Shown in pieces: positions 3,809 to 6,800 of a stretch of 64,000 nucleotides of DNA (positions are counted from its first letter, which is position 1; each line of letters begins with the position of its first letter). The stretch covers positions 246,811-310,810 of the forward strand of contig BCIM01000012.1 of NCBI GenBank assembly GCA_039545315.1, written 5' to 3'. Made by a program: the position numbers and the translations under genes. Origin of the DNA: Kondoa malvinella (lineage: Eukaryota; Basidiomycota; Agaricostilbomycetes; Agaricostilbales; Kondoaceae). The notes under the pieces are model-generated. The model saw nothing but the letters and a program-made list of their open reading frames with translations. It made no database searches and was not told where the DNA came from.

Positions 3809-6800
3809 ATGTCATTTCGTCTCCCGGTCTCGTTACACCGAAGCAGTCATGGCGAGTTCCCTTTCGACATAGCGCAGCTCAACGATGGTTAACATAGTAT
3901 ATAGAACACGGTACGAGTCACGCAAGCTTGTGCAGACAAGTATCAAGTGAGTTCATGCTGTCATGACAAGTCGCCCTTTGACAGGCAAACATACAGGCCA
4001 TCGTCTCTGGTGACCCTACAATCTCATGGTATGCTTATAATAATCGCTAGTGGAGTGGAAAGACAGCTAACGTGTGAACGCCAGGGCCATCTTCACGCTA
4101 CCGCCTTCCAACGAACTCAAGCTCTCTTCGAGTGGGTCTGGTGATTTGGACGAGCTCGAGGATCAATTTGAAGAGTCAGTAGCTACTGCCTGGCGTTGTT
4201 GTGATACGCGGCTCACAAATGGTTGCAGCGCTCGTATTCAATTTGGCTTCATTCGAGTGCAAGACAAGTCAAATGGCTTGACCAAGTTTGTGCTTGTCAA
4301 CTGGGTGAGAACTCCGTCTAGGCGAATGAGTAGGATTAATGCATTCACAGATGGGAGAAGGAGTAGCCGACTCGCGTAAAGGCTTGTTCTCGACGCATGC
4401 AGCTACAGTAGCCAAAACGCTCAAAGGCGCTCATGTGACCTTACAAGCGCGATCAGAAGCCGACGTAGATCCTGCGCTGATTCGCAAGCGATTGGAAGAA
4501 TCAGGCGGAAGCAGATACTCTATCAATAAAGAAGCTCCTTCCAAACCTTCTGCTCCTGCGCCTGTCGGTTCTTCCTATGTTCCTGTTGGAAGACCGGATA
4601 TCGCTTCTCTTACTGCTAAAGCAAAGAAGGAAGAACCTGTTGGACCTGTTGGGACTTCGTATGAACCTAAGCATAATGAATTGGCCAATATTCGAGCTGC
4701 AGTGAGCGCAAAGAAGGAAGAGCCGATCGCGCCTGTTGGATCTGCTTATGAACCAAAACACAACGAGCTAGCGAATATTCGTGCTTCGCTCGGTGGTCAA
4801 AGGAAAGAAGAACCCGTTGAACCGGTTGGAACAGCCTACGAAACGAAACACAACGAATTGGCCAACATTCGCGCTGCTCAAAACAAGGCTCCGGTCACTT
4901 CTTCAGGAGGCTCGAAACCCTTCAGTTCACTCACTCGTCCTGCAGCCGTCACTGCTCCAGATCAAACAAGCACCAACATTACTTCGCCCATCGAAGGTGA
5001 CGAACCACATCTCTCTGGCGTCAAAGCTTTCTCTTCTCGAACTGCTACACCTGTACCTACCAAAGCTGCCGATTCTAGAGAAAGACCAGAAGCAGTCGGT
5101 ACTTCATACACGCCTGTTTCTTTGGGTAGACCAGGCAAACTTGGCAACCGCTGGAACCCTGGTGGAGCAGCTTCAGAAGAAAGCAGTGCCGCGCCTGCTT
5201 CGAGGAATGTTTCTAGTGGTAAGATGACCTGGAGTGAACGACAAGCAGAGACGAAGAGAAAGCAAGAAGAGGAAGATCAAAGGTCGAGGGAATTGAGTGG
5301 TCAAGCTGCGCCGAAACAGCAGGTCACCATGCCCCTTGGACCGAAAGATGATAGTGAAGATGAGCAAGAAGAAGAGGAAGTTGCTGCTCCTCCTGCTCGT
5401 ATGTTTGATTATTTCCTGCTTGTATGCTCGTGCGCTAGCTGATGCGTTTATGTCATGCAGCTCCTCGTATGTCTATATGTCGGAAACCAACTTGTTTGGC
5501 TTCACTAACATGCCATGCTATTTAGCACCACCTCCACGTTAGTTTAACAGTGACCAGCCGGAATATGTGACTGATATTGTAATTTCTAGCACCAGCACCA
5601 TCCATGCCAGCGCGATCCGCAGAACCTGCTGCAGCTGCTCGTAAGCCCCTTCCCGCTGTGGCTTTCGCTTGATGTACTGACACTCCATAGCTCCCCCGCC
5701 TCCACCACCCCGTGAGCTATCTTTCTGAGCGTCTGTATTCGTGACTCATCGTCTATCCCTCTTTTACAGCACCACCACCGCGTAAGTTTTGAGCATATAT
5801 GCTGTGCCTGGCTGATTGTCCCGTAGCTGCTATGCGACCGCCTTCGCCTGATTCCGAGCCAGAAGCCGAAGCTGCAGCGCCCCCGCGTACGCCCTTCTTC
5901 TTACTTCGGGTTTATTGCTTGACTAATTCGATATCCATTAGCTCCTCCTCCACGTGAGATTCTACGGGTTTTCCTCTGTATGCAGCTGATGCGGCATGTC
6001 GCTTTCTTGCAGCACCACGTGAGTACAAGCCAAAGATATGAGACTGGGCTAATCTTATGTAATTCAGCACCACAAATGCCAGGCATGGGAGCGGCCCCCA
6101 AAGCGGCCATCGGAGCTGCATCTGGAGCTGCGATTGGCGCTAGTATTGCTAATCAGCAGGCACAAGCATCTCGGGACGAAGAAGAGCAGGAAGTTGAGGA
6201 ACAGACGAGACACTTGGATCAGCTTGCACTGGCAAAGTACGACTACAACTCTAGCATCGCTCGTTGCTGAAAGATTGTTGCTACAGTGATCAAGCGACGG
6301 AAGCGGCCGCAGCTGGTCTCTCGTCGAACAACAAGGACTCGGGCATGAAAGCTCTTGTCATGTACTCTTACGAAGCAGCGGAGGAGAACGAGATGGATCT
6401 CATTGAGGTGGGTAGCGGTTCATGTGCTCAGTCCACTATCTCATACATGACAAACAGGGAGAAGTCATTGAGCAAGTTGTGAGCTTGGGCGAAGGTTGGG
6501 CTTCAGGTGTCAGTGCGGACGGAAGACGAACAGGCATGTTCCCGTCAAACTATTGTGAGACGCAAGAAGAGGAAGAGGAAGCACAGCAGGTAGCAGAACC
6601 TCCCGCTCCGCGTAAGTCGCAACTTACAGATCTTGAACTCAGCTAATCATTGCTCTTAGCACCACCTCCAATGGCCTCTCGTCCAGCAGCAGGCGGTAAT
6701 CCGCCATTTGCGGTAGCAATGTACGACTACGTGGCAGACGAAGCCAACGAAGTCAGCTTCAGTGAAGGCGAGAGGCTCTCGGACATCGAGTTCACGGATC

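What the first reader, a model, noticed from the sequence alone, without database searches (positions are those of the whole stretch)
5399..6067. ABP1 proline linker built from eight skippable microexons
Eight consecutive exons of 6, 12, 51, 21, 12, 60, 12 and 6 nt lie between nine short GT-AG introns. Every exon is a multiple of three, every intron is phase 1, and every exon ends in C and begins with CT or CA, so any exon-to-exon junction encodes proline. Any subset can be skipped with no frameshift and an unchanged junction residue. The linker between the F-actin head and the SH3 domains could thus vary by up to 60 residues and in the number of polyproline (SH3-ligand) runs. This looks like an alternative-splicing tuner of proline content, or an intron-rich expansion of a PPP repeat in which the splice signal itself was duplicated.
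Basis: partly seen in the sequence, partly recalled or inferred. Interest (0 to 1): 0.9.

Follow-up and report, generated by a model that had tools for sequence, protein, structure and literature searches.

The report
Proline linker split into microexons
In a fungal actin-binding gene the proline-rich linker is cut by nine tiny introns into eight very short, frame-neutral exons, and a second actin-regulating gene of the same genome is built the same way; whether the cell uses this for alternative splicing is unproven.

Summary
Nine GT-AG introns (45-62 nt) separate eight exons of 6, 12, 51, 21, 12, 60, 12 and 6 nt at 5399-6067; all are phase 1, all junctions are C|C (proline), and each intron has a CTNAY branch-like site. 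A chain of nine was met in 0 of 1000 shuffles (maximum 2) and 0 of 338 other window tiles (maximum 3). The gene is ABP1/drebrin-like: ADF-H plus two SH3 domains. New here: the WASP/Las17 gene of the same genome has 16 consecutive phase-1 introns and 15 in-frame exons of 6-54 nt in its polyproline region, while two formin genes keep uninterrupted proline tracts. Full inclusion gives P8, P12 and P10 runs, as in many relatives; skipping all leaves PP at most. I judge the ladder mainly constitutive: short introns recognised one by one, frame symmetry making skipping errors harmless and perhaps reflecting how the ladder grew. A splicing tuner is possible but untested: no RNA and no related genomic DNA could be reached. 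New variant of a known kind.

The parts
4351..5398 (+). Long ABP1 exon: end of ADF-H domain, PVGT.Y..KHNELANIR repeats, acidic stretch, ends ...VAAPPA plus the first C of the next proline codon (phase 1)
   Evidence: model; ADF-H by Pfam PF00241
5399..5460 (+). intron 1 of ladder, 62 nt, phase 1
   Evidence: GTATGT..CTGAT..CAG
5461..5466 (+). microexon 1, 6 nt
5467..5525 (+). intron 2, 59 nt, phase 1
   Evidence: GTATGT..CTAAC..TAG
5526..5537 (+). microexon 2, 12 nt
5538..5589 (+). intron 3, 52 nt, phase 1
   Evidence: GTTAGT..CTGAT..TAG
5590..5640 (+). exon 3 of ladder, 51 nt (with the junction base: PPAPSMPARSAEPAAAA)
5641..5690 (+). intron 4, 50 nt, phase 1
   Evidence: GTAAGC..CTGAC..TAG
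5691..5711 (+). microexon 4, 21 nt, all proline codons
5712..5769 (+). intron 5, 58 nt, phase 1
   Evidence: GTGAGC..CTCAT..CAG
5770..5781 (+). microexon 5, 12 nt
5782..5826 (+). intron 6, 45 nt, phase 1 (a multiple of three, but holds an in-frame stop)
   Evidence: GTAAGT..CTGAT..TAG; stop
5827..5886 (+). exon 6 of ladder, 60 nt (with the junction base: PAMRPPSPDSEPEAEAAAPP)
5887..5941 (+). intron 7, 55 nt, phase 1
   Evidence: GTACGC..CTAAT..TAG
5942..5953 (+). microexon 7, 12 nt
5954..6012 (+). intron 8, 59 nt, phase 1
   Evidence: GTGAGA..CTGAT..CAG
6013..6018 (+). microexon 8, 6 nt
6019..6067 (+). intron 9, 49 nt, phase 1
   Evidence: GTGAGT..CTAAT..CAG
6068..6236 (+). exon after the ladder (PQMPGMGAA...), leads to SH3 domain 1
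   Evidence: by eye similar to PPMAGA..GASLADQ of Mixia P0010
6287..6611 (+). SH3 domain 1 (two exons around an intron at 6408-6457) and acidic/proline linker 2
   Evidence: model; two SH3 stretches by Pfam
6612..6659 (+). further phase-1 intron at C|CACCACC in the linker between the two SH3 domains
6660..6878 (+). SH3 domain 2 and stop
   Evidence: Pfam PF00018; PDB 1jo8, an actin-binding-protein SH3, third of 10 matches after two nebulin entries

Best explanation
The feature is a ladder of short symmetric (1-1) exons, most of them microexons, that together encode the polyproline linker of ABP1; the WASP/Las17 gene of the same genome has a separate, longer ladder. Each short intron is recognised on its own (intron definition: U1 at the donor, branch-point and acceptor factors about 50 nt away), so even 6-nt exons are joined, and the main mRNA includes all eight exons and encodes runs of 8, 12 and 10 prolines, candidate ligands for SH3 and similar domains. 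Because all introns share one phase and split a proline codon, a skipped exon removes only a few residues: splicing errors are harmless, so the ladder can persist in a disordered, length-tolerant linker. The ladder may have grown by unequal exchange between in-register CCN tracts on the two sides of a founding phase-1 intron, each event copying an intron plus a whole number of proline codons. Shown: exon-intron anatomy from sequence, phase uniformity, the second ladder, polyproline in many relatives. Inferred: constitutive inclusion, intron definition, error tolerance, and the mode of growth (the least certain step).
For: 9 of 9 introns have donor, branch-like site and acceptor; their lengths (45-62 nt) match the other introns of the ABP1 model (38-56 nt) and the WASP ladder (47-59 nt). 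Retention gives an in-frame stop in 7 of 9 and a frameshift in the other 2. Full inclusion gives runs of 8, 12 and 10 prolines, skip-all at most 2; of 67 homologues 35 had a parsable linker, 22 of these with a run of 5 or more and 17 of 7 or more; of nine that I picked as Pucciniomycotina (recalled taxonomy), 8 parsed and 8 of 8 have a run of 5 or more. WASP ladder: 16 phase-1 introns, exon sizes 54,42,12,24,12,30,6,36,6,33,12,18,21,33,36 nt, joined reading a WASP-like polyproline region; chain of 16 against a maximum of 3 in 300 shuffles; 119 of the 120 WASP homologues listed (of 841) have a run of 5 or more prolines after residue 150. Phases: 26 of 26 proline-region introns (9+1 ABP1, 16 WASP) are phase 1, against 0 of 6 other ABP1 introns of the model, one of the six (3947) set by hand. 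Literature: in C. [quoted passage not shown] In S. pombe skipping averages about 0.24% and is taken as degraded error (PMC4448684, abstract and passages); fungi show comparatively low skipping (PMC6142364, passages).
Against: No transcript was seen, so constitutive inclusion is inferred. Exons under 51 nt are spliced less efficiently in vitro and often skipped in vivo in animals (PMC8378409). 13 of 35 parsed homologues lack a run of 5 prolines (some because the crude parser stopped early) and 32 of 67 were dropped as unparsable. For the growth model, intron similarity is mixed: against dinucleotide shuffles both ladders look related on some measures (ABP1 top-five 0 of 300, mean 11 of 300, maximum 7 of 300; WASP mean 0 of 300, top-five 14 of 300, maximum 61 of 300); against 73 unverified intron candidates of the window ABP1 does (top-five 0.15% of 2000 sets, mean 3.7%, maximum 5.2%) and WASP does not (18-37%); between the genes neither exceeds the other gene's introns (permutation 0.24 and 0.51). 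So copies must be old, or the introns arrived separately.
Confidence: 0.57

Rival explanations
1. Alternative-splicing tuner: the short exons are included in regulated combinations, so that ABP1 (and WASP) change the length and number of polyproline SH3 ligands with growth state.
For: 8 of 8 exons are multiples of three with the same phase and junction residue; 15 of 15 WASP exons are in-frame too. Two genes of branched-actin assembly share the design while two formin genes keep uninterrupted CCN tracts. Very small exons are often skipped in animals (PMC8378409). A condition-dependent fungal microexon exists (20 nt, Xlr2 of Trichoderma virens, PMC11121469, abstract and passages), and the authors on P. 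chrysosporium P450 genes regard microexons as likely promoters of alternative splicing, which was observed for CYP63 (PMC1184071, passages).
Against: Frame symmetry is also expected from the growth or tolerance models. Splice signals are complete at all nine introns. A single skip would need a composite intron of 114 nt or more (from the coordinates); long introns of this genome were not surveyed, so this is a weak point. A survey of WASP-family cDNA/EST clones found no alternatively spliced exons except in Aplysia, though it notes that few full-length cDNAs exist (PMC3298513, passages). No isoform data.
Confidence: 0.2
2. Independent insertion of many introns into CCN repeats (introner-like or reverse-splicing gain) with a target preference inside proline runs; splicing is again mainly constitutive.
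For: Three separate proline regions (ABP1 linkers 1 and 2, WASP) carry only phase-1 introns at C|C (24 of 26) or G|C (2 of 26), whereas C|C flanks were seen in 2 of 73 unverified intron candidates of the window; no strong sequence kinship among ladder introns.
Against: Recent introner copies would be alike in sequence; these are not. CCN tracts before both FH2 domains, and other CCN-rich loci, show no ladder.
Confidence: 0.2
3. The region is one 669-nt intron and the short exons are chance.
For: No RNA evidence; joining 5398 to 6068 also keeps the frame.
Against: 0 of 1000 shuffles gives a chain of more than 2 introns; the joined exons encode a polyproline linker as in many relatives; a second, longer ladder exists in WASP.
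Confidence: 0.03

Closest known systems
Schistosoma micro-exon genes (MEGs)
   Same: 10-20 very short exons in a row, mostly multiples of three, 6-81 bp (PMC10526429, abstract and passages)
   Different: MEGs have long introns (0.1 to about 5 kb), encode secreted proteins and have alternatively spliced isoforms; here introns are 45-62 nt, the proteins are conserved cytoskeletal ones, and no isoform is known
Microexons in Phanerochaete chrysosporium P450 genes
   Same: Basidiomycete genes with exons coding 2-10 aa and frequent 45-55 bp introns (PMC1184071, abstract and passages)
   Different: Found across P450 families; the passages seen do not describe uniform-phase chains within a repeat
Xlr2 microexon switch, Trichoderma virens
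   Same: Fungal microexon; shows that one can be regulated. The paper says earlier experimental tests in fungi were limited to S. pombe (PMC11121469, abstract and passages)
   Different: Single 20-nt exon, not a multiple of three, in a DNA-binding domain
Titin PEVK and tropoelastin exon arrays (recalled; the search gave nothing useful)
   Same: Many small same-phase exons encode a disordered, partly proline-rich protein region that can vary in length
   Different: Animal genes with known isoforms; no homology claimed
ABP1/drebrin-like and WASP/Las17 of other basidiomycetes
   Same: Same domains; polyproline in many ABP1 and nearly all listed WASP homologues
   Different: Their exon structure could not be read here (protein records only)

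Membership tests
ABP1/drebrin-like actin-binding protein | N-terminal ADF-H (cofilin-type) domain | tested here: met
   PF00241, E 2.1e-22, residues 3-116 of the joined, 5'-incomplete protein
ABP1/drebrin-like actin-binding protein | C-terminal SH3 domain(s) after a proline-rich linker | tested here: met
   Two SH3 stretches; PDB 1jo8, named actin binding protein, third of 10 matches of SH3 domain 2; 67 homologues, many with both domain types
ABP1/drebrin-like actin-binding protein | F-actin and Arp2/3 binding | not testable with these tools
   Needs protein work
WASP/Las17 (second ladder gene) | WH1 domain, GBD, polyproline, acidic C-terminus | tested here: inconclusive
   Homologues found with the joined protein carry PF00568 (WH1) and mostly PF00786; own C-terminus SDEESNASDDEDW (one search read by eye). 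The protein itself was not run against Pfam, and its joins outside the ladder were made by eye
Microexon gene architecture | Exons of about 30 nt or less between introns | tested here: met
   6 of 8 ABP1 ladder exons are 21 nt or less; 9 of 15 WASP ladder exons are 30 nt or less; introns are predicted from sequence
Alternatively spliced symmetric cassette array (MEG, PEVK type) | Same phase, lengths multiples of three | tested here: met
   8 of 8 and 15 of 15
Alternatively spliced symmetric cassette array (MEG, PEVK type) | Isoforms that differ in included exons | not testable with these tools
   No RNA data reachable
Introner-like elements | Introns of near-identical sequence at new positions | tested here: not met
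   No near-identical introns within or between the two ladders; weak and mixed similarity only

The most novel reading that the evidence does not exclude
ABP1 and WASP, two partners in branched-actin assembly, each carry a frame-locked microexon ladder that is spliced combinatorially, letting one spliceosomal input set the polyproline dose (0-60 and 0-125 residues) of both at once.
Probability: 0.13. Interest if true: 0.85.

Novelty: new variant of a known kind. Interest (0 to 1): 0.58.

Why it matters
It gives a natural test of how a fungal spliceosome handles runs of 6-60 nt exons, and of whether uniform phase in exon arrays marks regulated splicing or only tolerance of errors. Two ladders in one pathway beside uninterrupted proline tracts in two formin genes form a built-in control. 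It also warns that automatic gene models of WASP and ABP1 in intron-rich fungi may lose their polyproline linkers.

Tried and rejected
Homologues as genomic DNA: a viral-contig scan with the long ABP1 exon gave no relative. Metagenome contigs allowed no scan and genome contigs (bacteria and archaea) was not scanned, so conservation of intron positions was not tested.

Intron kinship: dinucleotide shuffles first looked partly positive, but shuffling destroys shared branch motifs; other controls (cross-gene; unverified introns of the window) made it weak and mixed, so I do not claim descent from one intron. The 73 control candidates were sought only between 42 and 75 nt, so they say nothing about longer introns; an earlier argument of mine from their 95th percentile was withdrawn, and the odds moved slightly (constitutive 0.60 to 0.57, tuner 0.17 to 0.20, novel case 0.12 to 0.13).

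In one search a second, badly set 'proline' filter (C at the third exon base) found 6 of the 9 introns; it is not used.

Proline-tract genes: the chain finder demands C at both exon ends and a branch motif; it recovered 9 of 9 ABP1 introns but only 5 of 16 WASP introns, so its 0 of 16 other distinct CCN-tract loci (of 22 by my grouping of the 50 matches; six were not fetched; coding was checked only for the two formin tracts, which lie in the frame of the FH2 match by coordinates) is a weak negative. The C7 hit proved on reading to be one intron, not a microexon.

First coding exon of ABP1: several starts tried by eye, none convincing; left open.

Full report
What is there. The window lies in a 19.1-Mb genome of 20 contigs (G000). 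Its best protein relatives are basidiomycetes, with rusts, Sporobolomyces and Mixia prominent, so I take it as a probable Pucciniomycotina fungus (taxonomy recalled); the species is not identified. The gene on the + strand from about 3985 to 6878 reads, when its introns are removed, as a 699-residue (5'-incomplete) protein with an ADF-H domain and two SH3 domains: an ABP1/drebrin-like protein.

Is it more than chance. Demanding a GTNNG-type donor, a CTNAY site, an HAG acceptor, introns of 42-75 nt and in-frame exons of 3-63 nt without stops, the longest chain is nine introns here, at most two in 1000 dinucleotide shuffles and at most three in 338 other tiles on both strands of the window. C on both sides of the intron is found in nine of nine here and in 2 of 73 strict but unverified intron candidates elsewhere in the window. 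Six other introns of the ABP1 model are phase 0 or 2 (the first of them set to 0 by hand); the tenth proline-region intron, at 6612-6659 between the SH3 domains, is again phase 1 and C|CACCACC.

A second ladder. Pattern searches of the whole genome for a short proline exon followed by an intron and another proline exon gave 25 and 18 matches, against 17 and 15 for the reversed control patterns. Most are therefore likely chance, but 13 of the 43 fall in two places: six in this gene and seven on contig 1 at 1,616,320-1,616,840. The latter (fetched, read) looks like a WASP/Las17 gene: homologues of its joined protein carry WH1 and mostly GBD domains. Its polyproline region is made of 15 exons of 54, 42, 12, 24, 12, 30, 6, 36, 6, 33, 12, 18, 21, 33 and 36 nt between 16 introns of 47-59 nt, all phase 1; joined, they read PPPGRRPDSV...PPPPPPPPPSAAPSG, a WASP-like proline region. 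The chain of 16 compares with at most 3 in 300 shuffles when no branch site is demanded; 13 of the 16 introns have a YTNAY site in range, 3 have none, and one acceptor is AAG. Fourteen of the 16 junction codons are proline (C|CN) and two are alanine (G|CN), so the 'always proline' rule is slightly looser there.

Not every proline tract is so cut. CCN tracts of 7 and 8 codons lie uninterrupted just before the FH2 matches of two formin genes, and 16 distinct CCN-tract loci plus a WH2 locus showed no chain of three or more, with a finder of limited sensitivity. In the two ladders the longest uninterrupted CCN run in DNA is 6 codons, although the ABP1 protein reaches 12 prolines. Keeping DNA repeats short may be a side benefit; I have no test of it.

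What it does. Full inclusion yields a proline-rich linker such as many relatives have: of 67 homologues 35 could be parsed, 22 with a run of five or more prolines, 17 with seven or more; 13 have none of five, some because the crude parser stopped early. Eight of nine hand-picked rust, Mixia and Rhodotorula proteins parsed and all eight have such runs. Skipping everything leaves no run above two. Retention of any ABP1 ladder intron would break the protein: seven of nine carry an in-frame stop, the other two shift the frame. In WASP, 7 of 16 carry an in-frame stop, 8 shift the frame, and one (W16, 54 nt) is a multiple of three without stop and could be retained in frame. This favours removal of the introns and inclusion of all exons as the main product. 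In C. elegans the only two microexons found independent of PRP-40 have very short flanking introns, which the authors link to default intron definition; the same paper notes that exons under 51 nt are often skipped (PMC8378409, passages). In S. pombe exon skipping is rare error that is degraded (PMC4448684, abstract and passages). A condition-dependent microexon in Trichoderma (PMC11121469, abstract and passages) and the view of the P. chrysosporium P450 authors (PMC1184071, passages) keep a regulated use open.

How it may have arisen. Uniform phase 1 in three proline regions needs a cause. Unequal exchange between CCN tracts on either side of an intron would copy the intron with a whole number of proline codons and keep phase and junction residue. 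It predicts kinship among ladder introns. For ABP1 this is suggestive against other intron candidates of the window but absent against WASP introns; for WASP it is seen only against shuffles. In WASP, exons share a 16-nt word (twice exact and once at 88%) and two 12-nt exons with flanking bases are identical over 17 nt, which hints at exon copying but may reflect the protein repeat. The question stays open.

Print record. Searches for microexon with Cryptococcus (10 papers, all listed), microexons with fungi and proline-rich (1), microexons with basidiomycete and introns (2), three of polyproline/intron/microexons/WASP (10 of 21 listed) and three of Abp1/fungal/alternative splicing/microexons (8 of 41 listed) showed no title or abstract start that describes such ladders. 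Basidiomycete microexons as such are known (PMC1184071). A WASP-family survey reports no alternative exons outside Aplysia, while noting that full-length cDNAs are few (PMC3298513, passages). The library lacks most subscription journals.

Noticed in passing
G000:C1, L052 minus strand 4744-3513: WASP/Las17-like gene with 16 consecutive phase-1 introns and 15 in-frame exons of 6-54 nt in its polyproline region.
   Followed up: yes
4351-5398: Intronless tandem repeats (PVGTSYEPKHNELANIRA..., three copies by eye) in the long exon of the same protein, in contrast to the intron-cut proline repeat.
   Followed up: no
6612-6659: Phase-1 intron at C|CACCACC in the linker between the two SH3 domains, same kind as the ladder introns.
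   Followed up: partly
L053 minus strand, about 4352-4302: A single short intron splits a proline codon (CTCCTC|gtatgt...ttttag|CACCAG) in an unrelated gene that looks like an SGNH/GDSL-type hydrolase (recalled resemblance).
   Followed up: no
2031-3750: Neighbouring upstream gene on the + strand looks like bystin/Enp1 (recalled resemblance, from the translated frames).
   Followed up: no
7100-8900: Downstream minus-strand gene with several short introns looks like a zinc alcohol dehydrogenase (recalled resemblance).
   Followed up: no
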